This document shows positions 10,686-27,208 of a DNA stretch of 64,000 nt, piece after piece. The stretch comes from Acidimicrobiales bacterium (GTDB lineage: Bacteria > Actinomycetota > Acidimicrobiia > Acidimicrobiales > SHLQ01). Below the pieces are notes generated by a model. It was not told where the DNA came from. It made no database searches and saw nothing but the letters and a program-made list of their open reading frames with translations. A program made the position numbers and the translations under genes. The stretch covers positions 1 through 64,000 of the forward strand of contig JAHDCX010000009.1 in assembly GCA_020629635.1 (NCBI GenBank). Reading direction: 5' to 3'. How positions within the stretch are numbered: the stretch's first letter is position 1; the number at the start of each line of letters is the position of its first letter.

Positions 10686-10691
10686 GGGACC

Positions 10692-12785: not shown

Positions 12786-13447
12786 GCCGTGGCGTTCCGG
12801 CGCCGGTCGCGCCACCATCGGATCGCTTCAACGCTCAAGGTGATCGACAGCGCCGTACCGAAGGCAAGCCACAGCGCTGTCGTCGTGCTCTCGACCTGCT
12901 CGGCCACGAAGAAGCCGAGAAGTGCGGCGTAGCTCGCCCACAAGGTCGTGGCGAGGAGATCCCACCGGGTGAACCACGACCAGAACGGCTGACCGGTCAG
13001 CCCGCAAGAGAACGTCATGGCCGTGCGGCCTCCGGGGATGAACCGAGCGGTGATCAGCAGCAACCCGCCGCGCTTTCGGATCTGTTCGCCGGTCGCGAAC
13101 AACCGCTTCTCGCCCTTCTCGCCACGGAAGAAGATCGATCGGAGCAAACGGTCTGAGCGGCTTCCGATCCAATAGCCGAGCGTGTCCCCGCAATAGGCGC
13201 CGAAAGCGCCGACCACGATCACGAGCACGAGGGGCAGCACGCGTTGGTCGTTGATGAGGACCGCGTCGCTCGCGGCGACACCACCAGCGATCACGGTGAA
13301 CTCGCTCGGCACCACCGGAAACACCGAGTCGAGAAGCGCAATCGAGAAGAGCACCGCGAAGAACCACGGATTCGACGAGATGTCGGTGATCAGTTCTTCC
13401 ATCTGATGGAACAGGTCGATCGCCCACTGGATCACGTGGAGCACCAT
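12782..13447 (-). CDS. DedA family membrane protein
   Basis: A 221-residue DedA/SNARE-associated (VTT domain) protein, a family now linked to phospholipid or undecaprenyl-phosphate flipping. Features: LDSVFPVVPSEF (near residue 35), the re-entrant loop region, GAYCGDTLGYWIGS, and RFIPGGRTAMTFSCGL with the conserved Arg and Gly. Four or more hydrophobic spans. ATG at 13447 gives MVLHVIQWAIDLF; the start at 13477 adds only an Arg/Pro-rich lead. It overlaps the patatin gene. Confidence 0.9.
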   Translation of the reverse strand: MVLHVIQWAIDLFHQMEELITDISSNPWFFAVLFSIALLDSVFPVVPSEFTVIAGGVAASDAVLINDQRVLPLVLVIVVGAFGAYCGDTLGYWIGSRSDRLLRSIFFRGEKGEKRLFATGEQIRKRGGLLLITARFIPGGRTAMTFSCGLTGQPFWSWFTRWDLLATTLWASYAALLGFFVAEQVESTTTALWLAFGTALSITLSVEAIRWWRDRRRNATA

Positions 13448-13559
13448 ACCGCCGCGCCTCGGGCGGCGTTCGGGCATTCACCCAATCGCGCCGAAGATCA
13501 TCCGTTGGGACGAGGAACAGGTGGACCTCTGGGAGGATGACGACACGGCGCGGGATTCC

Positions 13560-13565
13560 TACCAT
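13560..13565 (+). promoter_or_regulatory. TANNNT box before histidine kinase gene
   Basis: TACCAT ends 6 nt before ATG 13572, the geometry of a leaderless transcript; it supports this ATG over the GTG at 13521. Confidence 0.4.
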
Positions 13566-13571
13566 TGGACC

Positions 13572-14735
13572 ATGTCCGAGACGTCTGTCCGGCCTTCGCG
13601 CCGAGATGCAATGGCGATGGCCGCGATCACTGCCGCGCTGCTCATCGGCAACATCGGGCCGGCGGACACCGCGCAGACCGAACGAAACATCGACGCCTTT
13701 GCGATCGTGCTGATCCTGATCGCGGGTGGGGCGACCCTGTGGCGTCGGACGAATCCCGTTCCGGCGCTCGCGGTCGCGACGATCGCCAGCCTGACCTACT
13801 GGATCATGGACTATCCCCTGGCCGGCGGAGGGCTCGCCTTGCTCGTCCTGCTGTATTCGCTCGCGGCGCACGAACCCGAGCGAGCTCGAGCGGTCCGGGT
13901 GCTCGTCCTGTTCACGATCGTGATCTCGCTGGTCCTCATCGCCGGATGGCTTTCCCCAGAGGAGAACGGGGTGAGCGTCGGGTTGATCGTGCTCAACATC
14001 GTCTTGTTCCAACTCGCCTGGTTTGCCGGCGATGGGATCCGTGGTCGACGGGAGAACGTCGAACGACTGCAGGAGCAGATCGACGCCGCGCAGGCGGAGA
14101 AGGTGGCGGCGACCGAACGGGCGATCGAAGGCGAGCGCACGCGGATCGCTCGCGAGCTCCACGACATCGTCGCCCACTCGATGTCGGTCATCGTCGTGCA
14201 GTCCGAGGGGGCTCAACGCCTCGTCGGCCGCGACGATGAGGCCGTTGCCGAGGCACTTGCGGCCATCGAGGCGACGGCGAGAACAAACCTCAACGACATT
14301 CGCTCGACCATCGGCGGTCTCCGAAGCGACGCCGCCCGTACCCCGCTGCCCGAGTTGTCCCGGCTGCCGGAGCTCGTCGAGCAATGTGCCGAAGCCGGGC
14401 TCGACGTGTCGCTCGAAGTCAACGGCGAACAGCGTTCACTTCCCGCCATGATCGAACTCTCCGGCTACCGGGTCGTGCAGGAATCCCTGACGAACACGAT
14501 CAAGCACGGCGGTCCAACGGCATCGGCGGCTGTCACGGTCGACTACCGAGACGACGCCTTGGCGATCGAGGTGGTCGACGACGGTCGTGGCGCCGGGGCG
14601 ACACCCGAGACACCGGGTCATGGCTTGCTCGGCATGCGCGAGCGAATCGAAGCCGTTGGCGGTCAGCTCCGTACCGGGCCACGCCAAGGAGGCGGCTACA
14701 CCGTGCGCGCCGAGATTCCGGTGGGCGCCGAATGA
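13572..14735 (+). CDS. Two-component sensor histidine kinase (NarL-type, HisKA_3)
   Basis: A 387-residue membrane sensor. Four or five hydrophobic segments fill residues 15-155 with almost no extracytoplasmic loop, then a coiled-coil linker (ENVERLQEQIDAAQAEKVAA), the HisKA_3 dimer and phosphoacceptor motif RIARELHDIVAHS with His197, and a C-terminal HATPase_c domain (NTIKHGG N-box, DDGRGAG, HGLLGMRERIEAVGG). This is the common actinobacterial DesK/LiaS-like class, often responding to membrane or cell-wall stress. ATG 13572 has a TACCAT box 6 nt upstream; GTG 13521 would add 17 charged residues. It overlaps the response regulator start (ATGA). Confidence 0.92.
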   Translation: MSETSVRPSRRDAMAMAAITAALLIGNIGPADTAQTERNIDAFAIVLILIAGGATLWRRTNPVPALAVATIASLTYWIMDYPLAGGGLALLVLLYSLAAHEPERARAVRVLVLFTIVISLVLIAGWLSPEENGVSVGLIVLNIVLFQLAWFAGDGIRGRRENVERLQEQIDAAQAEKVAATERAIEGERTRIARELHDIVAHSMSVIVVQSEGAQRLVGRDDEAVAEALAAIEATARTNLNDIRSTIGGLRSDAARTPLPELSRLPELVEQCAEAGLDVSLEVNGEQRSLPAMIELSGYRVVQESLTNTIKHGGPTASAAVTVDYRDDALAIEVVDDGRGAGATPETPGHGLLGMRERIEAVGGQLRTGPRQGGGYTVRAEIPVGAE

Positions 14736-15388
14736 GCGCCGACGCCCCGATTCGCGTCCTCGTCGTCGACGATCAGCCCCTGCTGCGAGCCGGCTTCGGG
14801 ATGATCCTGCAGGGCGAGGACGACATGGACCTCGTCGGCGAGGCCTGCGACGGGATCGAGGCCGAGTCCCTGGCACGTTCGCTCAACCCCGATGTCGTAC
14901 TGATGGACATCCGGATGCCCGAACGTGACGGGATCGAGGCGACTCAGGTCCTCACGCAATTCGAGAATCCGCCAGCCGTGTTGATTCTCACCACCTTCGA
15001 TCTCGACGAATACGTCTACGCGGCGCTCCGAGCGGGTGCCTCGGGCTTCTTGTTGAAGGATGCGGGCGCCGACGAGCTCATCCGAGCGATTCGGGTGGTT
15101 GCCTCGGGCGAAGCCCTGCTTGCTCCCACGGTCACGCGCCGGTTGATCGGCGACTTCGCCCAGCGTCCGGCTTCGGTCGAGGTGGTTGGACTCGACGAGT
15201 TGACCGACCGCGAGAACGAGGTCCTTCAACTGATGGCGAAGGGCCTGTCCAACGGTGAGATCGCCGAGTCGCTGATCCTCGGCGAAACGACGATCAAGAC
15301 GCACGTCGGCCGCATCCTCATGAAGCTCGGCGCACGAGACCGCGTGCAAGCGGTCATCGCCGCCTACGAAGCGGGCATCGTCGGCTAA
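14732..15388 (+). CDS. Response regulator, NarL/LuxR type
   Basis: A 218-residue DNA-binding response regulator. The receiver domain has the acid pair Asp13/Asp14 (VVDDQ), phosphoacceptor Asp59 (VVLMDIRMP), Thr in LTTFD and Lys109 (GFLLKDAG). The C-terminal LuxR-type helix-turn-helix reads LTDRENEVLQLMAKGLSNGE, then TTIKTHVGRILMKLG. It forms the partner of the kinase encoded just upstream (ATGA overlap at 14732-14735). The divergent target could be the ABC exporter genes downstream on the other strand, a frequent partnership (inference). Confidence 0.95.
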   Translation: MSADAPIRVLVVDDQPLLRAGFGMILQGEDDMDLVGEACDGIEAESLARSLNPDVVLMDIRMPERDGIEATQVLTQFENPPAVLILTTFDLDEYVYAALRAGASGFLLKDAGADELIRAIRVVASGEALLAPTVTRRLIGDFAQRPASVEVVGLDELTDRENEVLQLMAKGLSNGEIAESLILGETTIKTHVGRILMKLGARDRVQAVIAAYEAGIVG

Positions 15389-15403
15389 CCAACCTGGCAG
15401 GGT

Positions 15404-17944
15404 TCAGCTGTGGCTGATTGCGTCGAGGACGTTGAGCTTCGAGGCCCGCTGCGCCGGGAAGTAGGCGGCGATGACACCGATGATCCCGCCCACGATCAGG
15501 TAGATGACGAGGCTGAGCCACGGGATGCCGACCTTGCTGATGAAGCTGTCGGGGATGGCGACAACCGCCGCCCATCCGAGGAGCAGTCCCATCAAGATTC
15601 CGAGCAGCGCTCCGAAGATCGACACGATCACCGCCTCCCAGCGGATCGTCGACTTGAGCTGGTTGCGCGTCATCCCTACGGCACGGAGCAGGCCGATCTC
15701 TCGGGTCCGCTCCAGCACGGAGAGCGCCATCGTGTTGATGATGCCGAAGAACGCCACGACGAGGCAGAGCACGAGCAGACCGTTGATCACGATCTGAATC
15801 TGGCCGATCTGGCCTTCGACGCCTTCCTGGAACTCGGTGTTGTCCTGAACGGTGAGCTGGGCGAAGTTGTCAGTGATCGTCTCAACCTCCGCACGGGCGA
15901 CCTCTGCGTCCACCCCATCGGCGATGGTGATCCCGACAAACCCGACCGCATCGATCTGGACGTGTTGTCGGCTCAGTCGGCGATCCACAATGAACGAGTT
16001 TTCGACGATCGACCGGTCGTCGTAGATCGCTTCGACGGTCAGATCGGTCACGAAGCCGTCTTCGAATTCGACAGGCACGGTCGTGCCGAGCCCCCACCCG
16101 CGTTCATCCGCGGTCTCATCGAAGACGGCGATACCGTTCTGGCTGAGCTCGGCGGTGCCGTCAAGGATGCCAGCGTTGATGACCGACGTACCGGTGGCCG
16201 TATCGAACCCGGTGACCGCCTCGACATCACCGTCGACGAGCATTTCGACACGGGCGAAGCCCGCCACGCTGTCGGTTGAGGGCAACGCATCGAGTTGTTC
16301 GACAACGCCAGAGGAGAAGTCCAGTCCCTGGTTCGCCTCATAGACGAAGAGATCAGCCGTGAGCGCGTCTTCGAGGAGGTCGTCGAACGTGGCGAGTAGC
16401 GAGGAGGCGAGCACCGCGACACCGGTGATCAGCGCCAATCCGATCATGAGCGCCGTCGCGGTGGCTGCGGTCCGCTGCGGATTGCGACTCGCGTTGTCAC
16501 GAGCAAGACGACCGTTGATGCCGCGCGTCGCCTCGACCGGACCACCGATCATCCCGGCAGCTCGGCCAGCGAACAACGCACTCATCATCGAGACTCCGAT
16601 GAACGTGAGGGCGGCACCGATACCGATCGCCGCCAACCGTGCTGCGGTGCCGTCCACATCGCCGAACATGCCGAGGGCGAGAAGGACAAGGCCAGGAATC
16701 AACACGACGGCGCCAGCGACGAGACGGAAGCTCACGCTGCGCTCTTTGCGTCCACCGTCTCGGACCGCTTCGAGCGGCGACACTCGAGACGCCCGGAACG
16801 CCGGGATGATGGCCGAGATGAGGGTGACGAAGAGCCCGACGGCCACGACGACAATGACCGTGCGGAGGCGAATCTCGAGTGGGCCGTCGGGGAACGAATT
16901 GCCGCCAGCGCTGAACAACAGTTTGAGCAGCCACGCAACGCCGATGCCCCCGAAGAGGCCGACGATCGACGCGAAGATGCCAATGATCAGCGCTTCGATC
17001 AGCACCATGAATCGGATCTGTCCGCCGCTCGCACCGATCGACCGGAGCAGGCCAAGCTGCTTGGTGCGCTGGCCGACGAGGATCGCAAAGGTGTTGTAGA
17101 TGATGAAGATCGAGACGAAGAGCACCACGAACGCAAAGCTCAACAAGATGTTGCCGAAGATGCCGATCACCGAACCGAAGTCCTCCTGAGACTCGCCGAT
17201 CACGGTTTCGCCGGACACGACTTCGACGTCGGCCGGAAGCAGCGGCTCGATGGCCGCAAGGAGTACGTCCGTGTCGGTGCCGCCGCCGTTGACCACGACC
17301 GAGTCGACGACGTCACCCGAGTCGAGAATCCGTTGGGTTGTGTCGAGGTCGAACAGGTTGAAGTAGGCGCCACCCGTGCCGCCGTCACCGAAGTCGATGA
17401 TGGCGCTGAGCTCGAACTGCTCGGGCTCACCGGTCGGTAGCGACATGGTGACCTGGTCGCCGACGGCGAACCCGCCTGCGTTCGCCTGCGCGGAGTCGAG
17501 CGCGACCTGTTGGCCGATCGGAGCGACACCCTCGACAACGGTGAAGCTCGAGACCGGGCTCGGCCCACCCCACGACGACGTGAAGACGGGTGGTCCGAGG
17601 GGTCGATTGACCTCGCCGTCGTCGAGGAGCGAATAGGTCTGCTCGAAGGCGAAGATTCCGCCCTCGGCATAGTCGACCTCGGGCAGCGCTGAGATCTCAT
17701 CGATGATCGACTCGTCGAAGCGAACCAGATTCTCGCCAGAAGAGTTGAGCTCTGGTTCGACCGCCCGAACCTGTGCGTCGACACCAGCGAAGGCGTCCTC
17801 GCTGATCTGGTCGAAGATCGAGCGGAGACTGTCGGCGAGTACGAACGACCCCGACACGAAGGCGACGCCGAGCACGACCGAGATGAGGGTGAGGACGAGT
17901 CGTCCGAGGTTGGCGCGAATTCCGCGCACCACCAGCTTGAGCAT
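15404..17944 (-). CDS. ABC transporter permease, duplicated FtsX/MacB type
   Basis: An 846-residue permease built of two MacB-type halves: each begins with a membrane helix, then an extracytoplasmic domain, then an FtsX core of three helices. Half one: VLGVAFVSGSFVLADSL at the N-terminus and FtsX near residues 275-400 (YNTFAILVGQRTKQLGLLRSIGA). Half two: FtsX near 715-840 (NTMALSVLERTREIGLLRAVGMT). This layout is that of actinobacterial exporters for antimicrobial peptides or lipoproteins. It follows its ATPase gene by 3 nt, so one operon. The opposite-strand two-component genes end 15 nt away; such pairs often sense and export the same agent. Confidence 0.93.
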   Translation of the reverse strand: MLKLVVRGIRANLGRLVLTLISVVLGVAFVSGSFVLADSLRSIFDQISEDAFAGVDAQVRAVEPELNSSGENLVRFDESIIDEISALPEVDYAEGGIFAFEQTYSLLDDGEVNRPLGPPVFTSSWGGPSPVSSFTVVEGVAPIGQQVALDSAQANAGGFAVGDQVTMSLPTGEPEQFELSAIIDFGDGGTGGAYFNLFDLDTTQRILDSGDVVDSVVVNGGGTDTDVLLAAIEPLLPADVEVVSGETVIGESQEDFGSVIGIFGNILLSFAFVVLFVSIFIIYNTFAILVGQRTKQLGLLRSIGASGGQIRFMVLIEALIIGIFASIVGLFGGIGVAWLLKLLFSAGGNSFPDGPLEIRLRTVIVVVAVGLFVTLISAIIPAFRASRVSPLEAVRDGGRKERSVSFRLVAGAVVLIPGLVLLALGMFGDVDGTAARLAAIGIGAALTFIGVSMMSALFAGRAAGMIGGPVEATRGINGRLARDNASRNPQRTAATATALMIGLALITGVAVLASSLLATFDDLLEDALTADLFVYEANQGLDFSSGVVEQLDALPSTDSVAGFARVEMLVDGDVEAVTGFDTATGTSVINAGILDGTAELSQNGIAVFDETADERGWGLGTTVPVEFEDGFVTDLTVEAIYDDRSIVENSFIVDRRLSRQHVQIDAVGFVGITIADGVDAEVARAEVETITDNFAQLTVQDNTEFQEGVEGQIGQIQIVINGLLVLCLVVAFFGIINTMALSVLERTREIGLLRAVGMTRNQLKSTIRWEAVIVSIFGALLGILMGLLLGWAAVVAIPDSFISKVGIPWLSLVIYLIVGGIIGVIAAYFPAQRASKLNVLDAISHS

Positions 17945-17947
17945 CGC

Positions 17948-18694
17948 TCAGTCCCCCAGGCTCTTGATCGTGTCGAGCACCGAGTCAGGTGTCGGGTCGT
18001 CCATCTGCTTGACGATCTGACCGTCCGCAAGGAACAGCACTCGGTCGCTGTACGACGCAGTGACCGGATCGTGGGTGACCATCACGATGGTCTGGCCGAG
18101 GTCCTTCACGGCCCGGCGCATGAACTCGAGGATCTCTGCGCTGGTCTTGGAGTCCAGGTTGCCGGTCGGCTCGTCACCAAAGACGATCTCGGGTCGGGTC
18201 GCGAGCGCCCGCGCCACCGCCACCCGCTGCTGCTGGCCGCCGGAGAGCTCGTTCGGTCGGTGCGAGATGCGGTCGCCCAGACCGACGGTCTGAATGACTT
18301 CGTCGACCCAGCCCATGTCGATCTTGCCGTCACCGAGGTCCGACGGCAGCGTGACGTTCTCGCGCACGTTCAGCGTGGGCACGAGGTTGAACGACTGGAA
18401 GATGAAGCCGACCTGCTCGCGACGCATCTTGGTGAGCTGCTTGTCGTTGAGGGTGCCGAGGTCGGTGCCGCCGATGAACGCACTGCCCGAGGTCAGGCGA
18501 TCGAGTCCGGCCATGCAATGCATCAACGTGGACTTGCCGGATCCCGACGGGCCCATGATCGCAGTGAATCGCCCGGCTTCGAAGCCGACCGAGACCTCAC
18601 GCAACGCGTGGACCTCCGTGTCACCCGATCCATAGATCTTCGAGGCACGATCCGCGCGCGCCGCCCATCGAACCGCTTCTTCGGTGACCGTCAT
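17948..18694 (-). CDS. ABC transporter ATP-binding protein (MacB/LolD type)
   Basis: A 248-residue ATPase of the LolD/MacB class: Walker A GPSGSGKST, Q-loop FIFQSFNLVPTL (the FQSFNL form typical for this class), signature LSGGQQQR, Walker B IVFGDEPTGNLD and H-loop VMVTHDP. ATG at 18694 is supported by GGGGAG about 9 nt upstream; an in-frame ATG at 18709 would add five residues (MGRNN). It pairs with the permease gene that begins 3 nt after its stop. The divergent gene at 18790 shares the 95-bp promoter gap. Confidence 0.95.
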   Translation of the reverse strand: MTVTEEAVRWAARADRASKIYGSGDTEVHALREVSVGFEAGRFTAIMGPSGSGKSTLMHCMAGLDRLTSGSAFIGGTDLGTLNDKQLTKMRREQVGFIFQSFNLVPTLNVRENVTLPSDLGDGKIDMGWVDEVIQTVGLGDRISHRPNELSGGQQQRVAVARALATRPEIVFGDEPTGNLDSKTSAEILEFMRRAVKDLGQTIVMVTHDPVTASYSDRVLFLADGQIVKQMDDPTPDSVLDTIKSLGD

Positions 18695-18789
18695 GTTGTT
18701 TCTCCCCAACTCGACTCTGCAGATGCACGCTACCGACCCAACGCCGCCCGGTCTTCGTCCCTGGGTCTGATGTCACCTCCACCGAAAGG

Positions 18790-20133
18790 ATGACCACCCA
18801 TGCGGCGCCGACAATGAGCCAGAAGTGCCTCAACGCGTCGGGTGGTTCAACCGATCTGGCGATGGTGACGAGTCCGACATCGACGATCGTTCCCGCCAAC
18901 CGCTTCGGTCAACTGCTCGCGGAGGCCCGACTTCGCTCGGGCGCCGACCTCGAAGAGCTGGCGAAACGCAGCCATGGTGAGTTCACCGTTGGCGAACTCC
19001 ACGATCTCGAAGCCGGACATCGCTCCCTCGACGATGCCCTCATCGAGACCATCACGACGCTGTACGAGGTCGACTGCGGCATCATCGTGCCCCAACGAGC
19101 CGAGCTGACCATCGACCTCGACATGCACGTCATGTCGGCCTCGGGTCGGGCGGTGCCGCTCGAGTCGCAGCAGCACGACCACATCCTCGACCGATACCTC
19201 TCTTTGGTCTACCTCCTGCGCAATCGCCAACCCGGCAGCTCGGTTCCGCTGCGCGACGAAGACGTCGCCATCCTCGCTGCTTCGCTCGCCGAGCGCAGCG
19301 AACTCATCGAGGAACAACTCCTCGCAGCCATGGCTGCGGACACCGCAGCGGTCCGTGGCCTCATCGGCTGGCTTCGCCAGCGACTGTGGGTCCCGGGTGC
19401 TGGTGCGCTGGTTGGTGCGGTTTCGATCGGCACCCTGGTCATGGTCACCGAGGGTCCGGCGGCACCCCCTTCGCCAGCGGGCCTGGACGGCGGGCTGCCT
19501 GATCTGCGCAGCAATGCCGCCGCACGAATCGGATTGCTGGGCGCGACGAGCGGCGCCACGAGCCAAGCCGGCGACGTTGGCTCGCCAACGACCACCGCGT
19601 CGGCTCCAGCGACGACGACGTCGACGGCTGCAGCGTCCCCGGCGGCGAGTGACGCTCCGACGACCACTCTGGCCGAGTCGGGCTGGACACCGGAGCAGAT
19701 GGGCGAAGCGGCAGAGGCGCTTCTGCCCTTTGACTGGGAGGCCGCGCTTCCGGGATGGCGGATCACGTACGCGGGATCGCACGACCGATTCCGCGGCCTC
19801 ACGTTTCCCTATGACCAGACGATCGAGATGTACGTCCGCGCCGACGACACGCCAGAGTCGCTCGCGGGGATCCTCGCCCACGAGCTCGGCCACGCCGTCG
19901 ACGTCACGCATTTCAAGGACGCCGATCGTGACGAGTGGCTCGAGGCGCGTGGTATCCCAGCGACGCAATGGTGGCCGGATGCCTATGCGAGCGACTTCGA
20001 GACCGGCGCCGGCGACTTTGCCGAAGCGTTCGCCTACTGGGCCCTCGGCGACCCCACCTCTTCTCGCGTCGGCGGCACACCCACGACCGGACAGCTACTG
20101 GTCCTCGAGGGGCTGATCGCCGGTCACCTCTGA
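18790..20133 (+). CDS. Membrane protein: HTH-like N-terminus, one TM helix, C-terminal HELGH metallopeptidase-like domain
   Basis: A 447-residue protein with an unusual order of parts. Residues about 38-96 look like a helix-turn-helix of the XRE type (FGQLLAEARLRSGADLEELA, then HDLEAGHRSLDDALIETI). Residues 200-220 are one hydrophobic helix, then a Thr/Ala/Ser-rich spacer (about 225-295), then a small domain with HELGH (His364, Glu365, His368) and downstream GAGDFAEAFAYW, which offers a Glu as third metal ligand, as in compact gluzincin-like peptidases. The HTH would be cytoplasmic and the peptidase outside. I know no named family with this design. Start uncertain: ATG 18790 overlaps GAAAGG; ATG 18814 and 18862 are alternatives and all keep the domains. 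Confidence 0.75.
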   Translation: MTTHAAPTMSQKCLNASGGSTDLAMVTSPTSTIVPANRFGQLLAEARLRSGADLEELAKRSHGEFTVGELHDLEAGHRSLDDALIETITTLYEVDCGIIVPQRAELTIDLDMHVMSASGRAVPLESQQHDHILDRYLSLVYLLRNRQPGSSVPLRDEDVAILAASLAERSELIEEQLLAAMAADTAAVRGLIGWLRQRLWVPGAGALVGAVSIGTLVMVTEGPAAPPSPAGLDGGLPDLRSNAAARIGLLGATSGATSQAGDVGSPTTTASAPATTTSTAAASPAASDAPTTTLAESGWTPEQMGEAAEALLPFDWEAALPGWRITYAGSHDRFRGLTFPYDQTIEMYVRADDTPESLAGILAHELGHAVDVTHFKDADRDEWLEARGIPATQWWPDAYASDFETGAGDFAEAFAYWALGDPTSSRVGGTPTTGQLLVLEGLIAGHL

Positions 20134-20463
20134 GACCGAACGGGAAAAATGGCTCGGCCCGGGTCGGTGGCGGGTATCCGACCCGGGCCGAACATCTCGG
20201 ACCCACGGAGGGGGGATCGTGGGTCCCAGCGCCCGGTCGATGCAACGTTGGATCGAGTGGGCACGTTCGTTTTCGTTCTATATCCGTCGCCGAGGCGGTG
20301 GCGGGAACCGCCCCAGCGACAGACACCTACATGACGACCGGGCCGCACGAAAGGTCGCGCCTTTTCGTGCGACGTCCGTCACATATCGCAGCAGGCACCG
20401 GTTCCGGAATGTTTGGCGAGTATGGGACGCTGTGTGAAGAGGCTCGAAGGGAGAATCGCCGCC
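20134..20463. other. 330-bp gap with four hairpins, no credible gene
   Basis: The only gene-free stretch above 300 bases. It holds four perfect or near-perfect inverted repeats: 20154-20191 (14 bp), 20199-20226 (9 bp, loop GAGGGGGGAT), 20286-20320 (5 bp outer plus 6 bp inner stem) and 20344-20371 (11 bp with one bulge). A TATATC at 20279-20284 could be a -10 for the gene at 20464, which would put the last two hairpins in its leader. Short ORFs here are Arg/Pro-rich and look like chance frames. I could not match the folds to a riboswitch class. Confidence 0.6.
20154..20191 (+). terminator. 14-bp stem hairpin after the HTH-peptidase gene
   Basis: TCGGCCCGGGTCGG and CCGACCCGGGCCGA pair perfectly around a 10-nt loop, 20 nt after the stop codon at 20133. 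No T-tract; best read as an I-shaped terminator. Confidence 0.6.
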
Positions 20464-21237
20464 GTGAGCAAGACCGCCGTCGCTTTCGCAACGATCGCTG
20501 GAGTGTTCGTGCTGGCACTCCTTCTCGTGATCGGCCTCTTCTCCTTCGGCTGGGTCGACATCAACTGGCCGTGGGAGGACATCGTCACCGAGGAGACGAC
20601 GATCGAGATTCCCGTCGAAGAGGCCGGACCCGCGCAGGTCGTGGCGATCGAACCACTCGCCCTCGATTGCCGCGCCCGGATCGTCGCCGAGGTGCCGGTC
20701 ATCGGCACCCAGCGGACCGAGGTCGCCGGTGCCACGGTCAGCACCGATACGGTCCGACTCCGTGCGGTCGGCGACGTCGACACGTGCGTCGCCTCGGATG
20801 GCGTCGAGATCATCGAGCGAGCCGACGGCACCTGGGGCGTCATCATCGACGCTGATGCCATCGAGTTCGTCCGGCCGCGCGTCGACGCCGTCGCCACGAT
20901 GAACTCGGTCGAGACCGACCGAGGGATCGTCAACCAGTTGGTCGAGGCACTTCCCTGGACAAACGAAGACGATCAACTCACCCCCGCCGCGTTCGCCTTC
21001 GCCCAGACCGTGATCGGGTCGTCCGAATGCATGATGGCTGCGTACGACCAGACGGCCGCAGCGCTCGAAGCCGCCTACCGTGACCAGCTCGCCGAGCAGG
21101 GCGGCAATCCCGCCGACATCGACGTCATCATCTCCGGTGTCCCGAACTTCGACCAGAACGAAATCGACGAGAAGGTGTTGGGTGACGTCGAGTTCGTCGA
21201 AGACGCCGGGACCTCATGCGTCGTCGCCACGCCCTGA
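20464..21237 (+). CDS. Membrane-anchored protein of unknown function (possibly DUF4230-like)
   Basis: A 257-residue protein with an N-terminal signal anchor (AFATIAGVFVLALLLVIGLFSF) and an extracytoplasmic domain. Segments such as TVRLRAVGDVDTCV and the alternating strands, followed by a helical part with ALEAAYRDQLAEQGGNP, resemble the general layout of DUF4230 proteins, but this is a weak match by eye. GTG at 20464 is chosen: GGGAGA lies about 9 nt upstream and the hydrophobic helix starts right after. In-frame starts at 20413 and 20422 would add an Arg-rich lead. It ends 16 nt before mshC, with a promoter box for mshC in the gap. Confidence 0.75.
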   Translation: MSKTAVAFATIAGVFVLALLLVIGLFSFGWVDINWPWEDIVTEETTIEIPVEEAGPAQVVAIEPLALDCRARIVAEVPVIGTQRTEVAGATVSTDTVRLRAVGDVDTCVASDGVEIIERADGTWGVIIDADAIEFVRPRVDAVATMNSVETDRGIVNQLVEALPWTNEDDQLTPAAFAFAQTVIGSSECMMAAYDQTAAALEAAYRDQLAEQGGNPADIDVIISGVPNFDQNEIDEKVLGDVEFVEDAGTSCVVATP

Positions 21238-21241
21238 CCCG

Positions 21242-21247
21242 TAGGCT
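21242..21247 (+). promoter_or_regulatory. TANNNT box before mshC
   Basis: TAGGCT ends 6 nt before the GTG start at 21254; consistent with leaderless expression of mshC. Confidence 0.45.
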
Positions 21248-21253
21248 TCGACC

Positions 21254-22423
21254 GTGATCCGGATCTTCGACACCGCCCAATCCATGGTCGTCCCGCTCGA
21301 GGTCGGATCCACGGTCCGGTTGTACGTCTGCGGCATCACGCCCTACGACTCAACCCACCTCGGCCACGCCAACACCTACCTCACCTACGACGTGTTGATT
21401 CGGCGGCTCGAAGACCTCGGACACCGCGTCGAGATGGTTCGCAACATCACCGACGTCGACGACTCGATCCTGCCGAAGGCCCGCGAGCTCGGCATCGATT
21501 TCCTCGAGCTCGCGGAGCGGGAAATGACCCGATTCGCCGCCGACATGGACGCGCTGAACATGCGTCCGGCTGTGGCCGAACCGCGGGCCACCGAGTCGAT
21601 CCCCGGCATGATCGATCTGATCTCCCGGCTCCAGGACGCCGGCCACACCTACGAAGTCGACGGCATCACCTACTTCGACGTCACGACCGCACCACGATTC
21701 GGACGTCTCTCGGGCTATGACCACACCACGATGGTCGCCCTGTCCGCCGAACGAGGCGGCAACCCCGCCGACGTCCGCCAACGCAACGAACTCGACTTCA
21801 TTCTCTGGCAGCCGTCCGCCGCGGACGAACCATCGTGGGAGTCGCCCTTCGGCGACGGTCGACCGGGCTGGCACATCGAATGCTCGGCCATGAGCTGGGC
21901 GCAGTTCGGGGAGACGCTCGACGTTCACGGTGGAGGGAGCGACCTGATCTTCCCCCATCACGAGTGCGAGCTCGCCCAGTCCGAACACGGGTATGGGCAA
22001 AGCTTTGCGCGCCACTGGATGCACACCGGGATGGTCGCCTACCAAGGCACCAAGATGTCGAAGTCGCTCGGCAACCTCGTCTTCGTCAGCGACCTGCGCG
22101 CGTCACACGACCCGGCGGCGATCCGGCTCGCGCTGCTCGGACACCACTATCGAGACGATTGGGAGTGGTTCGACGGCGACATCGAAGATGGCGAGGCACG
22201 CCTCGCTCGCATTCGACAGGCCATCGCTGTCCACACCGGACCCGACCCCACCGCAATGCTCGCCGCGGTCCGTGACGCGCTCGACGACGACCTCGACGCG
22301 CCGACGGCCCGAGACGCCATCGACCGCTTCGCCCGCCAGACCATCGACGGTCGCGGCGACGATCCGCGGGCCGGTGACGGACTCGCCGAAGCTGCCCAAC
22401 TCCTCGGCATCGCCGCTGCGTAA
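21254..22423 (+). CDS. mshC: L-cysteine:1D-myo-inositol 2-amino-2-deoxy-alpha-D-glucopyranoside ligase
   Basis: A 389-residue homologue of cysteinyl-tRNA synthetase that lacks the tRNA-binding C-terminus. It makes the Cys-GlcN-Ins intermediate of mycothiol, the main thiol of Actinobacteria, by ATP-dependent cysteine activation. MshC-specific motif: YVCGITPYDSTHLGHANTY with the HxGH box at residues 35-38 and zinc ligand Cys26; further WHIECSAMS, HHECELAQSE and the KMSKS loop near residue 270. CysS proteins instead read CGPTVYD. GTG start fixed by the length of the family N-terminus and a TAGGCT box 6 nt upstream. It sits 9 nt before cysS, its paralogue. Confidence 0.93.
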   Translation: MIRIFDTAQSMVVPLEVGSTVRLYVCGITPYDSTHLGHANTYLTYDVLIRRLEDLGHRVEMVRNITDVDDSILPKARELGIDFLELAEREMTRFAADMDALNMRPAVAEPRATESIPGMIDLISRLQDAGHTYEVDGITYFDVTTAPRFGRLSGYDHTTMVALSAERGGNPADVRQRNELDFILWQPSAADEPSWESPFGDGRPGWHIECSAMSWAQFGETLDVHGGGSDLIFPHHECELAQSEHGYGQSFARHWMHTGMVAYQGTKMSKSLGNLVFVSDLRASHDPAAIRLALLGHHYRDDWEWFDGDIEDGEARLARIRQAIAVHTGPDPTAMLAAVRDALDDDLDAPTARDAIDRFARQTIDGRGDDPRAGDGLAEAAQLLGIAAA

Positions 22424-22426
22424 CCT
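22421..22426 (+). promoter_or_regulatory. TANNNT box before cysS, made from the mshC stop codon
   Basis: TAACCT begins with the TAA stop of mshC and ends 6 nt before the GTG of cysS, so cysS may have its own leaderless promoter inside the apparent operon. Confidence 0.4.
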
Positions 22427-22432
22427 GTCGGG

Positions 22433-23821
22433 GTGCTTCGCATCCACGACACCCTGCGCGACGAACTCGTCGAACTCATCCCTCGCGTCGACGGGGAGAT
22501 TTCGCTCTATGCGTGCGGGCCGACGGTGTACGACCATCCCCACCTCGGGCACGCCCGCCAGGCGATGACCTACGACGTCGCTCGCCGCTATCTCGAATGG
22601 GCCGGCTGGCGAGTCCATCACGTCGCCAACATCACCGACATCGACGACAACATCATCAATCGGGCCAACCGTGAAGGCGTGAGCGACACCGAGATCGCCG
22701 AGACCTGGACCGCCGTCTACCTCGAGGTCATGGACGACCTCGGCATCCTGCCCCCGCACGATCGGCCGAAGGCGACCGAGTACGTCGACGAGATGATCGA
22801 GTTCATCAGCACCCTGATCGAGCGCGACACCGCCTATGTCACCGACTCGGGGGTCTATCTGCGAGTCCGCTCGGTCGAGGGCTACGGCGACCTCGTCCAC
22901 CGCACGGTCGACGAGTTGGCCGAGGGCGCCGGAACTCGGGTCGAGGTCGACGAAACCAAAGAGGACCCGCTCGACTTCGCGTTGTGGAAGGCTGCCAAGC
23001 CCAACGAGCCGACGTGGGACTCGCCGTGGGGTCCGGGCCGGCCGGGCTGGCACATCGAATGCGTTGCGATGAGCCTCGGCATTCTGGGCGACGACTTCGA
23101 CCTGCACGGCGGTGGCAACGACCTCGTCTTCCCGCACCACACGAACGAGCGAGCCGAAGCGATCGCGGCGGGCCGTTCGTTCAGCCGCTACTGGATGCAC
23201 AACGCGATGCTGAACATCGACGGCGAGAAGATGTCGAAGTCGCTCCAGAACTACACGACGGTTCGAGATCTGCTCGACGAAGACCCCCGCAACGCTCGGG
23301 CGCTTCGACTCGCGCTCCTCCAGACGCACTACCGCAAGATTCTCGAGATCAACCCGGAGATTTTGGAGACGGCCCGCGCCGGAATCGACCGCATGGACGC
23401 CATGGTCCGCAAGGCAACGGCAGCTGGCGTCGACATCGATGGCGCCGAGCTCGACGCCGACGCGGCCGAATCGTTCTCGGAGGCGATGGACCACGACTTC
23501 GGCACGCCAGAGGCGATGGCGATCGTCTTCGAGCAGGTGCGTCGGGCGAACGGTGCCATCGACGCAGGGGAGCCAGAGGCCGCCGTCGCGGCCAAGACGG
23601 CGATCGAGTTGGCAGGCGCCCTCGGACTCACGATCGGCGGCGACACTGGGGAGAACGACGGGGCAGAAGACGATGCCGAGATCGACTCGCTGGTCGCGGA
23701 GCGCACGGCGGCCAAGGCCGACCGCGACTTCGCCACAGCCGACCGGATCCGAGACGAGCTCGCCGCCCGAGGCGTCGTGATCGAGGACACGCCACACGGT
23801 CCGATCTGGCGCCGAGGCTGA
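22433..23821 (+). CDS. cysS: Cysteine--tRNA ligase
   Basis: A 462-residue class I aminoacyl-tRNA synthetase that charges tRNA-Cys. Motifs: YACGPTVYDHPHLGHA (Cys28 as zinc ligand, HxGH at 37-40), ANITDIDDNIINRA, WHIECVAMSLG, FPHHTNE and KMSKSL near residue 267. The C-terminal part (KADRDFATADRIRDELAARG, then VVIEDTPHG) is the normal DALR/anticodon-side ending. GTG start at 22433 with a TAACCT box 6 nt upstream. Directly follows mshC, from which it differs by its full C-terminal tRNA-binding region. Confidence 0.96.
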   Translation: MLRIHDTLRDELVELIPRVDGEISLYACGPTVYDHPHLGHARQAMTYDVARRYLEWAGWRVHHVANITDIDDNIINRANREGVSDTEIAETWTAVYLEVMDDLGILPPHDRPKATEYVDEMIEFISTLIERDTAYVTDSGVYLRVRSVEGYGDLVHRTVDELAEGAGTRVEVDETKEDPLDFALWKAAKPNEPTWDSPWGPGRPGWHIECVAMSLGILGDDFDLHGGGNDLVFPHHTNERAEAIAAGRSFSRYWMHNAMLNIDGEKMSKSLQNYTTVRDLLDEDPRNARALRLALLQTHYRKILEINPEILETARAGIDRMDAMVRKATAAGVDIDGAELDADAAESFSEAMDHDFGTPEAMAIVFEQVRRANGAIDAGEPEAAVAAKTAIELAGALGLTIGGDTGENDGAEDDAEIDSLVAERTAAKADRDFATADRIRDELAARGVVIEDTPHGPIWRRG

Positions 23822-23830
23822 GCCCCGGCA

Positions 23831-25492
23831 TCACTCGATGCCGTAGACCCCTCCCCTTCGGGTGCCGACCACGATCCGCCCACCCCAGACCGCAGGCGTC
23901 GACTCGATGCACCCGTCGTCGAGCGGCAGTGCCCACAGCTCGCCGGGCCTCGACCGGGGGTCGGACACATCGAACGCTCGGAGCACGCCAGAGCAGTTGC
24001 CCATCAACAAGACGTCGTCGACGACCACCGGTGACTGCCACAGGTGGAACCCAAGCCCGATCTCCCAGAGGTCTTCGCCAGTGGCTTGATCGACCGCCCG
24101 TAGTCGTCCGCCCTCACTCCCGAAGATCACGACGCCGCGGTGCAACGCGGGCGTGCCCCAGATCCCAGTGTTGATTCCTTGGTTCTCCTGGACCGACCAG
24201 ACGACGGCGTCATCACCCTCGCGTCGGGGATCGAGTTTGAGGAGTTGCCCGAGCTCGCGTGCTCGGGCGTTGCCCCGCTCGAACTCGGCGGCCACGTACA
24301 ACATGCCGTCAGCGTCGGCCACAACCGTGGCGTCGACGTCGTCGCCGACCCAGAACCGAAACACCCGAGTCGGATCCACACCCTCGCCGAGCTGTGCGAT
24401 GTCCCATCCCTGGACGAGACCGCCCGAGTTCGCGAAGTACAACGTGTCTCCGGAGATGGTCACCGAGTTCTCGATCGACACGTTCTCGCCGACGGCCGAC
24501 ACGAGTTCGGCGTCCCACCCGGGCGCAGAGAACACGACCTCGGGGTCGACCGTGACCGAGCCGTCGGCGCCGAAGCCACGTCGGAGCTCGATGATGTGCA
24601 GCCGACTGTTCTCCCCGCCAATGAACAGATGGTCGTCGAGCACGAGGGCGTTGCCGTCCCAGTCGTTGTTCCAGAGGGTCGGCCCACTGTCGTCGGCGTG
24701 GAGGCTCCACAATTCGCGGGCTTCACCGCCATCGAAGGCGATCACGCGGAACCGATCGTCGCGGGACCCGGTGTAGACGAGCGGGAAGCCATCTGGGTCG
24801 ATCGTGACCGACCCCTTGATGATGTCGTCGGTCTGGAAACGCTCGATGATCGGTTCGCCGGTCGTCGCGTCCAAGAAGTGCACCGCCCCGTCCAGAGCGC
24901 CGAAGACGGTCCACACTTGGCCATCCCGTTCGAAGATCGTCGGCTGCCCCGTCCAACCGGTGCCGCACCAGGTTCGGGTTTCGGCGCCGACCGTCGACTG
25001 ACGACAGAGTCCACCCTCTTCGGGGTAACGCCAGGCGACCACCGGGTCCTCGGGAATCGGCCCGCTGCCGTACCACGTACGCGTGGGCGACCCCCGAAAG
25101 CCCAGCAGACCGTCGATGGCCTGCGGCGGGGCCACGCCGACCATCAGAGGATCGACCCAGACCGTCGGGTCCCACGTCGTATCCACCGGCTCGTCGACGA
25201 TCGTCGTCGACGTGGGGGGAACCGTGGCCTGATCGGGCTCGTCCGTGTCGATCTGGAGGAAATCGAGGGTGGTGACTGCGATCTCGTCGGCGATCGGCAG
25301 TGCCGAAAACGTCGTGGCGACGACCATTGCGCCCATCAACATGAGCCCCCACCGGACTCGATCGATCGTCCGTTGGCGGCGCCGACGTCGACGACGTTCA
25401 ACGGTTCGGGTGATCAGTTCGTCGTACGGGTAGTCGGGAGCCCGATCACGCGGGTGCTGCGATGCGTCGTCCGCCAGGGCCTGATCGGCCAT
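23831..25492 (-). CDS. Membrane-anchored PQQ-like beta-propeller protein
   Basis: A 553-residue protein. After a charged cytoplasmic head (RTVERRRRRRRQRTIDRVRW) comes one hydrophobic helix (about 50-70), a Pro/Thr/Asp spacer, and a beta-propeller of PQQ-binding-like repeats: GAVHFLDATTGEPI, GGRLRAVDQATGEDLWEIG, SGVLRAFDVSD, each a Trp/Asp-docking blade. The repeats lack quinoprotein catalytic residues, so it likely binds or scaffolds at the cell surface. ATG at 25492 is chosen because longer in-frame starts run into the upstream DUF3499 gene, whose stop is 7 nt away. Second gene of a two-gene operon. Confidence 0.82.
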   Translation of the reverse strand: MADQALADDASQHPRDRAPDYPYDELITRTVERRRRRRRQRTIDRVRWGLMLMGAMVVATTFSALPIADEIAVTTLDFLQIDTDEPDQATVPPTSTTIVDEPVDTTWDPTVWVDPLMVGVAPPQAIDGLLGFRGSPTRTWYGSGPIPEDPVVAWRYPEEGGLCRQSTVGAETRTWCGTGWTGQPTIFERDGQVWTVFGALDGAVHFLDATTGEPIIERFQTDDIIKGSVTIDPDGFPLVYTGSRDDRFRVIAFDGGEARELWSLHADDSGPTLWNNDWDGNALVLDDHLFIGGENSRLHIIELRRGFGADGSVTVDPEVVFSAPGWDAELVSAVGENVSIENSVTISGDTLYFANSGGLVQGWDIAQLGEGVDPTRVFRFWVGDDVDATVVADADGMLYVAAEFERGNARARELGQLLKLDPRREGDDAVVWSVQENQGINTGIWGTPALHRGVVIFGSEGGRLRAVDQATGEDLWEIGLGFHLWQSPVVVDDVLLMGNCSGVLRAFDVSDPRSRPGELWALPLDDGCIESTPAVWGGRIVVGTRRGGVYGIE

Positions 25493-25499
25493 CGATGGT

Positions 25500-25979
25500 T
25501 CAGCCCGCTGCGGCAGGAGGGAACGGAAGCTGGATCGTCCCGTACTCGTCGAGGTCCACCTCATCGGGCCACCCCTCGGCGTCCGCCGACAACTCGGCGA
25601 TCTCCGCCTCAGGCTCCACGATCGGGCCGCGGAACGCACGGGCGAGCAGCCCGGTCGCCCGGAACTCCTCCACGGGATCGGCGTCGACGTCGGGGGCAAA
25701 CCAGGCCGATCGACGCGGCGCCGAGCGTTCTGGTGCAGGCGCTTCGGCGACCACGCCCTCCGTCACGACAGCAGGTTCCGAGTTGAGGTGCGCTCCGTCG
25801 TCGAATTGGTCGAGGGTCCATCCGGCGGGTACGGCGAAGCGGGCAGCATGCTCTGCGCAGAGCGCGACCGTCGACACGCCCGGCTCGCGGACGCGCCACA
25901 CTCGCTGTTCGGCCGGTGCGAACACGAACCAATCGGTGGCCCCTTCTGCACACCCCGGCTTTGCGCACAACGCCGACAT
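25500..25979 (-). CDS. DUF3499 family protein
   Basis: A 159-residue protein of the actinobacterial DUF3499 family. The conserved N-terminal half has a zinc-type pair in CAKPGC and a second pair in ALCAEHAARF, followed by PAGW, the family hallmark. The C-terminal half is acidic and low in complexity. The function is unknown; the Cys/His pattern suggests a small metal-binding regulator or adaptor. It diverges from the HAD gene across 62 bp that contain an 18-bp palindrome, and is followed 7 nt later by the propeller gene. Confidence 0.8.
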   Translation of the reverse strand: MSALCAKPGCAEGATDWFVFAPAEQRVWRVREPGVSTVALCAEHAARFAVPAGWTLDQFDDGAHLNSEPAVVTEGVVAEAPAPERSAPRRSAWFAPDVDADPVEEFRATGLLARAFRGPIVEPEAEIAELSADAEGWPDEVDLDEYGTIQLPFPPAAAG

Positions 25980-26010
25980 GGAACAGACCCTAGCGCTTGC
26001 GCCCCTCTCG

Positions 26011-26028
26011 AATCACATCGTTGTGATT
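26011..26028. promoter_or_regulatory. 18-bp palindrome, possible operator
   Basis: AATCACA and TGTGATT are perfect arms around TCGT, in the divergent gap between DUF3499 and HAD genes. The last T of the right arm is also the first base of TACGAT (26028-26033), a possible -10 ending 8 nt before ATG 26042, so a bound protein would cover that promoter. Confidence 0.45.
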
Positions 26029-26041
26029 ACGATCGTCGACG

Positions 26042-26749
26042 ATGCTCGACACGATCTGCTTCGATGCCGACGACACGCTGTGGGAAAGCCAGGCCTATTT
26101 CGACGCTGCCGAGCTCGAGATCGCCTCGTTGCTGGCCGACTGGGCGACACCAGAGACGGTCGACGAGCTGTTGCTCCAGACCGCCCGACGCAACCTCCCG
26201 CTCTACGGGTTCGGGGTGAAGAGCTTCGTGCTGACGTCGCTCGAGACGATCGACGAGGTGACCAACGGCGCCGCCCCACCCGAACTCGCACGCCGCGTTC
26301 GCGAGATCGGCAAGGAGCTCCTCGCACACCCAGTCGACCTCCTGCCCGACGTCACCGACGTCGTCGAACAACTTGCCGAGTCCCATCGGACACTCATCGT
26401 CACCAAGGGCGACAACGCCCATCAGCGGCGCAAGATCGCGGCATCCGGTCTCGAGCACGTCGTCGACGGATACGAGATTCTCGTCGACAAGACCGCCTCG
26501 TCGTACCGGGAGTTCCTCCACCGGCGTGACCTCGTCGCCCGTTCGACCCTCATGATCGGCAACTCGCTCGCCTCCGACGTCTTGCCACCGCTGGACCTCG
26601 GCATGCATGCGGTCCACCTGCCACACACGTCGATCTGGGCGCACGAAGACATGGCGAGCGATGATCCACGGATCCGCACGATCGCCTCGATCACCGAGCT
26701 CCCCGATCACGTACGATCGGTGACGGACCAACCACCTTCCTCGGACTGA
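26042..26749 (+). CDS. HAD family hydrolase
   Basis: A 235-residue haloacid dehalogenase-type phosphatase. Motif I is FDADDTLWE (Asp8 nucleophile, Asp10 acid/base; the family mostly has DxDGT), motif II is IVTKGD (Thr), motif III Lys lies in VDKTASSYREF and motif IV is IGNSLASDVLPPLDLG. A helical cap follows motif I. Substrate unknown; the DADDTLW type is common among YjjG-like nucleotidases. The stop is 1 nt before the next gene, so they are co-transcribed. Confidence 0.88.
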   Translation: MLDTICFDADDTLWESQAYFDAAELEIASLLADWATPETVDELLLQTARRNLPLYGFGVKSFVLTSLETIDEVTNGAAPPELARRVREIGKELLAHPVDLLPDVTDVVEQLAESHRTLIVTKGDNAHQRRKIAASGLEHVVDGYEILVDKTASSYREFLHRRDLVARSTLMIGNSLASDVLPPLDLGMHAVHLPHTSIWAHEDMASDDPRIRTIASITELPDHVRSVTDQPPSSD

Positions 26750-26750
26750 C

Positions 26751-27143
26751 ATGGCGCCCACCCCCACCCGTCGACGGACCCTCACGACCGCCGAAGTCGA
26801 CGACTACGACCATCTCGCCCGAGGACTACTCGAGCGGGTCCGGCTCGTCCGCACAAACCTGCTTCCACCCCAGGCGGACGGACTGACGATCGGTCGATGG
26901 GTGTTCTTGCGGGGTGACCGGATCCAACGCTCCGCGAACACGCTCCTCGCCCACGAGCTCGTGCATGTTCGCCAGTTCGCCGAGATGGGAGCGATCGCGT
27001 TCTTGTCGACGTACGTGCGGGAGTACCTCGTCAATCTCTGGCGTCTGCGGAACCACCATCAGGCCTACCTGGCCATCTCGCTCGAAGTCGAGGCGCGCGC
27101 GGTTGCTGCAGAGTGGGAGTCACGCCTGAACACGCGACGCTGA
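26751..27143 (+). CDS. Small HELVH metallopeptidase-like protein
   Basis: A 130-residue cytoplasmic protein with NTLLAHELVHVRQF: His68, Glu69, His72 form an HExxH zinc motif in the style of DUF4157-type minimal peptidases. A conserved Glu further on (ISLEVEARAVAAEW) can be the third ligand. No signal or membrane span is seen except a weakly hydrophobic helix after the motif. ATG 26751 lies 1 nt after the HAD stop. The partner role with the HAD phosphatase is unknown. Confidence 0.7.
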   Translation: MAPTPTRRRTLTTAEVDDYDHLARGLLERVRLVRTNLLPPQADGLTIGRWVFLRGDRIQRSANTLLAHELVHVRQFAEMGAIAFLSTYVREYLVNLWRLRNHHQAYLAISLEVEARAVAAEWESRLNTRR

Positions 27144-27187
27144 CTCGCGCCAGCAAAACACTCACGTTGCGCAGCCATCCGCCGATT

Positions 27188-27208
27188 GATTGGGGACCGC
27201 TCCCAATC
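27188..27208. promoter_or_regulatory. Inverted repeat upstream of zinc-ribbon membrane gene
   Basis: GATTGGG and CCCAATC are separated by 7 nt, 28 nt before the GTG at 27236; candidate operator or leader hairpin in the 92-bp gap. Confidence 0.3.

What the first reader, a model, noticed from the sequence alone, without database searches (positions are those of the whole stretch)
18790..20133. HTH, transmembrane helix and HELGH peptidase in one chain
Cytoplasmic XRE-like HTH, one TM helix, Thr-rich spacer and an outer HELGH metallopeptidase-like domain would let an extracellular event be passed to DNA or self-processing free the HTH. Order is reminiscent of anti-sigma or BlaR-type sensors but inside one protein. 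It is divergent from an ABC exporter of the antimicrobial-peptide type.
Basis: inference. Interest (0 to 1): 0.6.

Follow-up and report, generated by a model that had tools for sequence, protein, structure and literature searches.

The report
Membrane-tethered BldD-like protein with surface peptidase
This gene makes a single protein whose inner half descends from BldD, a master gene regulator of actinobacteria that senses c-di-GMP, and whose outer half is a zinc protease on the cell surface; the combination is conserved in several families of Acidimicrobiia, is not described in any paper I could find, and suggests a direct link between an internal signal and surface protein cutting.

Summary
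The ORF at 18790-20133 encodes an XRE-type HTH, one TM helix, an Ala/Thr/Ser/Pro-rich spacer and a HELGH zincin domain. Residues 103-181, between HTH and membrane, are homologous to the C-terminal, c-di-GMP-binding domain of BldD, and the HTH's closest solved relative is the BldD DNA-binding domain. So this is a membrane-tethered BldD paralogue fused to an extracytoplasmic peptidase. The genome also has a soluble BldD with the intact RXD-X8-RXXD signature. Tethered forms keep three of its four key residues in 55/55 proteins, appear never to keep the fourth (Asp116), and have an acidic HTH (mean net charge -3.5 against +5.2). Peptidase residues HExxH...E are invariant in 73/73. The inner module also occurs tethered without peptidase, and the peptidase occurs alone with its own signal anchor. 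Fusions occur in at least five families of one order. The ABC 'divergence' is peculiar to this genome: in seven sister genomes the ABC pair is co-directional just upstream, and one sister lacks it. Best mechanism (inferred): inside-out control of a surface peptidase by a BldD-like dimerisation module. BlaR-type outside-in signalling is less likely. New variant of a known kind.

The parts
18790..20133 (+). ORF of the finding (P0001, 447 aa); probable real start ATG 18862 (residue 25)
   Evidence: most relatives start at residue 25 in alignment A1; full-length relatives up to E 4.5e-162
18901..19074 (+). XRE-type HTH, BldD DNA-binding-domain-like (residues 38-95)
   Evidence: Pfam HTH_31 E 3.2e-6; PDB profile best hit BldD DBD 2ewt/4ob4 E 4e-6; Foldseek top hit 4ob4
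19096..19332 (+). BldD C-terminal-domain-like part (residues 103-181)
   Evidence: PDB profile hits to BldD CTD 5tzf/4oay/2mc4 E 0.004-0.0085; Pfam BldD-like_C in 8/33; CTD-only profile hits 42/43 soluble BldDs and 0 of 2764 decoys
19219..19263 (+). Degenerate c-di-GMP signature: R144-x-x-X8-R155-x-x-D158 (BldD RXD-X8-RXXD without the Asp of motif 1)
   Evidence: R144, R155, D158 in 55/55 tethered proteins; Asp116 position Asp in 43/43 soluble BldDs and absent from the tethered residue counts shown; signature from PMC4151990
19390..19446 (+). Single TM helix (residues 201-219) with G205-x-x-x-G209
   Evidence: hydropathy and positive-inside; invariant G205, V208, G214 and nearly invariant G209; 21/21 identical between window and G010
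19447..19698 (+). Ala/Thr/Pro/Ser/Gly-rich spacer (residues 220-303)
   Evidence: composition; poorly conserved, 18-65% identity between orthologues
19699..20127 (+). Extracytoplasmic zincin-type metallopeptidase domain (residues 304-446)
   Evidence: 73-sequence alignment A2; AF2 pLDDT 96.2, pTM 0.91
19879..19893 (+). HELGH zinc-binding/catalytic motif (residues 364-368)
   Evidence: H, E, G, H invariant in 73/73
20023..20025 (+). E412, presumed third zinc ligand, 44 residues after the second His, in the GDFAEAF helix
   Evidence: invariant; helix 113-126 of the model; ligand role inferred
17948..18694 (-). ABC ATPase; co-directional and upstream of this gene in sister genomes
   Evidence: Pfam ABC_tran; neighbourhoods
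15404..17944 (-). FtsX/MacB-type permease of the same ABC pair
   Evidence: Pfam FtsX x2, MacB_PCD x2; neighbourhoods
13611..15388 (+). Histidine kinase and LuxR-type response regulator next to the ABC pair
   Evidence: Pfam HisKA_3, Response_reg, GerE

Best explanation
A single-pass membrane protein made of a tethered BldD paralogue inside and a zinc peptidase outside. SHOWN by computation: homology of HTH and following domain to BldD, one TM helix with N-in/C-out charge bias, an intact peptidase active site, long-term conservation of the fusion. INFERRED: the inner module no longer works mainly as a free DNA-binding repressor. It acts as a dimerisation/ligand module (a cyclic dinucleotide or other anionic ligand at the retained Arg/Arg/Asp surface, or a protein partner). 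Its state is passed through the GxxxG transmembrane helix and the spacer to position or activate two peptidase domains at the cell surface (inside-out control), where they trim surface or secreted proteins. In principle this resembles LapD-LapG, but in one chain and from unrelated domains.
For: BldD homology over both domains: PDB profile hits to BldD DBD (E 4e-6) and CTD (E 0.004-0.0085); Pfam BldD-like_C in 8/33; profile hits soluble BldDs over columns 12-156, including this genome's own at E 3e-15; CTD-only profile 42/43 BldDs, 0/2764 decoys. Tethered forms are one clade apart from soluble BldD (SH-aLRT 99). Three of four key c-di-GMP residues invariant in 55/55 (signature from PMC4151990). 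The genome has 28 GGDEF and 20 EAL matches. N-in/C-out charge bias; stand-alone peptidases with signal anchors or lipobox-like starts (L136, L164) place the domain outside. HExxH...E invariant in 73/73, so a working enzyme rather than a sensor husk. TM is the most conserved segment and has GxxxG. Acidic HTH. The same BldD-like+TM module carries a repeat-rich, adhesin-like outer part in L256.
Against: Asp116, Asn118 and Arg130 of the BldD site are replaced in nearly all tethered forms, and both motifs were needed for c-di-GMP binding in BldD, so binding may be lost. The HTH is still folded and under purifying selection, so DNA binding is not excluded. No substrate, ligand or direction of signalling is shown. 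Forms without peptidase show that the inner module has a role independent of proteolysis. Genomic context varies too much to name a partner.
Confidence: 0.4

Rival explanations
1. Outside-in membrane-tethered transcription factor: an external event seen by, or self-cleavage by, the peptidase domain changes or releases the BldD-like HTH, which binds DNA.
For: HTH fold intact and closest to a DNA-binding domain; HTH under purifying selection; BldD is a DNA-binding regulator.
Against: Acidic HTH, window -7 and fusion mean -3.5, against +5.2 in soluble BldD; the peptidase active site is complete in all, which a pure sensor would not need; no operator-like palindrome upstream.
Confidence: 0.22
2. 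Membrane scaffold or localiser, RodZ-like in principle: the HTH and CTD-like domains bind cytoplasmic proteins and place the peptidase at a cell site; no ligand switch.
For: XRE-HTH + TM + low-complexity outer part is RodZ-like in layout (general knowledge); acidic HTH; peptidase-less tethered forms exist.
Against: No RodZ homology: Pfam HTH_25 matched only 1/33 at E 0.025 and no RodZ C-terminal domain was found; the invariant Arg/Arg/Asp surface is unexplained.
Confidence: 0.22
3. Accessory peptidase of the neighbouring HK-RR-ABC/FtsX locus: it removes or processes peptides handled by the MacB/FtsX-type permease; the inner module is only an anchor.
For: ABC ATPase-permease-fusion are adjacent and co-directional with 38-105 bp gaps in sister genomes, with HK-RR upstream in some.
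Against: In the window the pair is inverted; G004/L102 has the fusion without the pair; other families have the fusion at unrelated loci such as PMM-Trm112-fusion-SahH. The BldD-like part is as constrained as the peptidase.
Confidence: 0.1

Closest known systems
BldD (Streptomyces; PDB 2ewt/4ob4 DBD, 4oay/5tzd/5tzf/2mc4 CTD)
   Same: Homologous HTH and C-terminal domain in the same order; R114/R125/D128 equivalents invariant
   Different: Tethered to the membrane, fused to an outer peptidase, acidic HTH, motif-1 Asp and several other c-di-GMP contacts lost; a soluble canonical BldD is also present in the genome
LapD-LapG (c-di-GMP receptor controlling a periplasmic protease, PMC3032545, PMC3032553)
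   Same: A cytoplasmic second-messenger-type module linked across the membrane to surface proteolysis (likeness of principle only)
   Different: LapD is a separate receptor of other domains and LapG a separate protease; here both halves are one chain; no ligand shown
HTH + ImmA/IrrE-type (M78) peptidases, e.g. IrrE-DdrO, RamB (6d2s; the name RamB is from memory)
   Same: XRE-type HTH and zincin together; weak Pfam M78 (best E 1.6e-4) and Foldseek IrrE hits
   Different: Those are cytoplasmic, without TM or spacer (general knowledge); here the domains are on opposite sides of the membrane
ATLF/M34 gluzincins, including secreted Pro-Pro endopeptidases (PPEP)
   Same: Collinear match from HExxH to a downstream helix with the presumed third Glu ligand; weak Pfam ATLF matches (10/73, best E 0.0054) and weak Foldseek hits; PPEP-1 releases surface proteins that are under c-di-GMP riboswitch control (PMC6366702)
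   Different: All matches below curated cut-offs; membership not established
BlaR1/MecR1
   Same: TM signalling protein with a zinc peptidase
   Different: Peptidase on the opposite side of the membrane and no HTH in the chain (general knowledge); no sequence match here

Membership tests
BldD family | BldD-type DNA-binding HTH | tested here: met
   PDB profile E 4e-6 to 2ewt/4ob4; Foldseek top hit 4ob4; HTH-only profile hits 43/43 BldDs
BldD family | BldD C-terminal domain | tested here: met
   as a remote homologue (the window protein alone gave no Pfam BldD-like_C match)
BldD family | Soluble two-domain protein | tested here: not met
   TM helix and outer domain; separate clade
BldD c-di-GMP effectors | RXD-X8-RXXD signature (R114, D116, R125, D128) | tested here: not met
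   Asp116 equivalent is Arg146 in the window and not Asp in the tethered counts shown; other three invariant
BldD c-di-GMP effectors | Binds c-di-GMP and dimerises | not testable with these tools
   needs biochemistry
Gluzincin metallopeptidase | HExxH on a helix | tested here: met
   invariant, helix 62-81 of the model
Gluzincin metallopeptidase | Downstream Glu as third zinc ligand | tested here: inconclusive
   E412 invariant in helix 113-126, but D402 and D409 are invariant too and no metal was modelled
ATLF / M34 (incl. PPEP) | Pfam ATLF above gathering score | tested here: not met
   window domain 13.0 bits against 27.4; best member E 0.0054
ImmA/IrrE (Peptidase_M78) | Pfam M78 match with cytoplasmic HTH-linked peptidase | tested here: not met
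   39/73 weak matches, best E 1.6e-4, not among those listed for the window domain; outer topology
RodZ | HTH_25 and RodZ C-terminal domain | tested here: not met
   HTH_25 in 1/33 at E 0.025, no RodZ C-terminal domain
BlaR1/MecR1 | M56 peptidase and penicillin-binding sensor domain | tested here: not met
   no such Pfam match among those shown
LapD-LapG | Degenerate GGDEF-EAL receptor and LapG-type cysteine protease | tested here: not met
   neither domain in the chain

The most novel reading that the evidence does not exclude
A one-chain, BldD-derived analogue of LapD-LapG: a membrane-tethered BldD paralogue that still reads a cyclic dinucleotide (perhaps in another form, given the lost Asp116) and switches a fused surface peptidase from inside the cell, one of a wider Acidimicrobiia class of tethered BldD-like proteins with different outer parts.
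Probability: 0.22. Interest if true: 0.82.

Novelty: new variant of a known kind. Interest (0 to 1): 0.57.

Why it matters
BldD is a central c-di-GMP-responsive developmental repressor of actinobacteria, known as a small soluble protein. A conserved class of BldD paralogues anchored in the membrane, some carrying an active-looking surface peptidase, would mean that this regulator was recruited for surface processes. It would also give a testable route from a cytoplasmic signal to surface proteolysis in a little-studied class (Acidimicrobiia) whose genomes, like this one, can be rich in c-di-GMP enzymes. The retained Arg/Arg/Asp set without the motif-1 Asp raises a sharp question: what ligand, if any, does it bind?

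Tried and rejected
BlaR/anti-sigma reading: no such domains. ABC exporter as fixed partner: linkage limited to one genus, orientation variable, absent in L102. BldD operator search (consensus from memory) in the window: 1 match at 1 mismatch against 5.7 expected, not upstream of the gene. Inverted repeats at 18680-18900: only 6-bp pairs, as chance would give. Rfam 10000-30000: nothing. phmmer of the single protein against the PDB: nothing useful. Foldseek of the peptidase domain: only weak hits (IrrE/PprI, anthrax lethal factor, selecase), best E 0.06, so no close solved relative. Defence library: capP E 0.042, taken as chance. PHROGs: HTH and generic metalloprotease only. Papers: no report of a membrane-tethered BldD-like protein in the PMC open-licence library; subscription papers were not searchable. 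My gene caller truncated some genes (e.g. L041/L100 from G088), so a few 'peptidase only' labels are wrong; counts of fusions are lower bounds.

Full report
WHAT IS THERE. The ORF at 18790-20133 (+) is a real gene: relatives of full length are found at up to E 4.5e-162 in sister genomes, and the alignment of 18 full-length relatives shows that most begin at residue 25, so the start is probably ATG 18862. The order is HTH (38-95), BldD-CTD-like domain (103-181), one TM helix (201-219), an Ala/Thr/Pro/Ser/Gly-rich spacer (220-303) and a zincin peptidase domain (304-446). Between orthologues the HTH, CTD-like, TM and peptidase parts are under purifying selection while the spacer drifts (18-65% identity); the TM is the most constant part, 21/21 identical between the window protein and G010, and holds a GxxxG pattern (G205, G209).

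THE INNER HALF IS BldD-LIKE. A profile of 33 inner modules finds the BldD DNA-binding domain (2ewt/4ob4, E 4e-6) as best PDB match and the BldD C-terminal domain (5tzf, 4oay, 2mc4, 5khd, 4oaz) at E 0.004-0.0085. Pfam BldD-like_C matches 8 of 33 members, best 6e-5. The same profile finds soluble BldD proteins across Actinomycetota over both domains (columns 12-156), among them this genome's own soluble BldD (G000:C31, E 3e-15), which independently passes Pfam BldD-like_C at 2.3e-18. To check that the HTH alone does not drive this, I built a CTD-only profile: it hits 42 of 43 soluble BldDs (40 below 1e-3, the genome's own at 8e-8) and none of 1382 other proteins or their 1382 reversals. The AF2 model of the inner module has a confident HTH and CTD-like part, and its best Foldseek PDB hit is the BldD DNA-binding domain 4ob4 (E 0.01, probability 1.0, TM-score 0.74 on the target). 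Foldseek did not list the BldD CTD among its top 50, so the CTD claim rests on sequence profiles.

WHAT WAS KEPT AND LOST. BldD binds tetrameric c-di-GMP through RXD-X8-RXXD (R114, D116, R125, D128), and both motifs are needed (PMC4151990). In the genome's own soluble BldD the signature reads RQD-X8-RRDD. In the window it reads R144-N-R146-X8-R155-D-E-D158. Over 34 distinct fusions and 21 peptidase-less proteins, R144, R155 and D158 are invariant (55/55); Asp does not appear at the Asp116 position in the residue counts shown (the seven commonest letters per group; it is Asp in 43/43 soluble BldDs); the Asn118 position is mostly Pro and the Arg130 position mostly Ala. The HTH is acidic: mean -3.5 in fusions, -3.0 in the peptidase-less forms, +5.2 in soluble BldDs, -7 in the window protein. 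So the tethered forms look like paralogues that changed ligand mode, DNA binding, or both. The genome has 28 GGDEF and 20 EAL matches, so c-di-GMP signalling is rich here.

THE OUTER HALF. The peptidase domain is predicted at pLDDT 96 and pTM 0.91. HExxH, D371, D402, D409 and E412 are invariant in 73 of 73. No curated family claims it: weak Pfam matches spread over many zincin families (M78 39/73, best 1.6e-4; ATLF 10/73, best 0.0054; the window domain reaches no cut-off) and Foldseek finds only weak IrrE, ATLF-type and selecase matches. The HExxH to Glu spacing and helix pattern resemble gluzincins of the ATLF/M34 and IrrE kinds; I infer E412 as third ligand. Location outside is supported by the charge bias around the TM and by stand-alone relatives that start with signal anchors or lipobox-like sequences (L136, L164).

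DISTRIBUTION AND MODULARITY. In 98 genomes (the window's own and its relatives), 42 have a match to some part. Fusions occur in families f1, f17, f18, f42 and f52 of the same order, and named hits are Acidimicrobiales/Acidimicrobiia or unplaced Actinomycetota MAGs, apart from a few records whose titles look mislabelled. The peptidase tree puts 32 of 34 fusions together, with two lying among stand-alone peptidases (L120, L044), so one old fusion plus possibly one or two more. The inner module alone with TM sits at a conserved locus between a glycosyltransferase gene of the dolichol-P-mannose-synthase type and NUDIX/DinB genes (gene names read from sequence), and in other genomes of the class the module carries other outer parts, for example a long repeat-rich, adhesin-like region in L256. 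Tethered forms and soluble BldDs separate on the tree (SH-aLRT 99; several long branches, so details inside are unsure; three peptidase-less rows, all from G074 (L063, L065, L066), may lack a TM).

SURROUNDINGS. In the window the gene is divergent from an ABC ATPase and a MacB/FtsX permease, with an HK-RR pair beyond. In seven sister genomes (L087-L093) the ABC pair, or in L091 what is left of it at a contig end, is upstream and co-directional, with 38-105 bp to the fusion gene, and in two of these HK-RR precede it. The simplest reading is that the window carries an inversion of the ABC pair. G004 (L102) has the fusion without the ABC pair. In other families the fusion sits elsewhere, several times between phosphomannomutase/Trm112 and SahH genes, or as tandem pairs of fusions. 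So the ABC link is not what defines the system.

HOW IT MOST LIKELY WORKS. Shown: the anatomy, the homologies, the conserved active site, the conserved TM. Inferred: inside-out control. A module derived from a ligand-driven dimeriser, kept at the membrane by a GxxxG helix and joined by a flexible stalk to an active peptidase, is best suited to control or place the enzyme. The precedent of principle is LapD-LapG (PMC3032545, PMC3032553), and in C. difficile a Pro-Pro endopeptidase frees surface proteins that are under c-di-GMP riboswitch control (PMC6366702). Against it: the lost Asp116 and other contacts, and the lack of any ligand or substrate evidence. Rivals are the outside-in tethered transcription factor, a RodZ-like scaffold and an accessory of the ABC locus; see those fields.

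NOVELTY. BldD, zincins and TM-signalled proteolysis are known; a membrane-tethered BldD paralogue, and its fusion to a surface peptidase, were not found in the open-licence literature. I call it a new variant of a known kind.

Noticed in passing
window 15404-18694 against L087-L093: The ABC ATPase + FtsX/MacB permease pair is inverted in this genome relative to sister loci, where it is co-directional and directly upstream of the fusion gene.
   Followed up: partly
L253:4670-5368 (G000:C19): A third BldD-like XRE protein of this genome (232 aa, no obvious TM) lies between a proteasome-subunit-like gene and a PafA-like Pup ligase gene.
   Followed up: no
L047-L059: Peptidase-less tethered BldD-like proteins sit at a conserved locus beside NUDIX and DinB genes; many end in short outer tails with an 'IG-[DE]-A-V...ER'-like motif.
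   Followed up: partly
L256 (G418), frame of 1158 aa: The BldD-like module plus TM is followed by a long DTGDQ-type repeat and near-identical repeated domains, adhesin-like in look.
   Followed up: partly
L254, L255, L263: BldD-like module without TM at the usual place, followed by a long Pro-rich linker and a conserved C-terminal domain that was not identified.
   Followed up: no
L094, L095, L097, L104, L107, L108: Tandem pairs of fusion genes; L109 and L113 have a peptidase-less tethered gene overlapping a fusion gene by 4 bp.
   Followed up: partly
window 21254-22423 and 22433-23821: Two adjacent CysS-like genes; the first lacks the DALR and C-terminal domains and may be an MshC-type ligase.
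   Followed up: no
L128, L130 (records titled Bifidobacterium breve): MAG contigs titled Bifidobacterium breve carry this acidimicrobial peptidase family; the titles look like mislabels.
   Followed up: no
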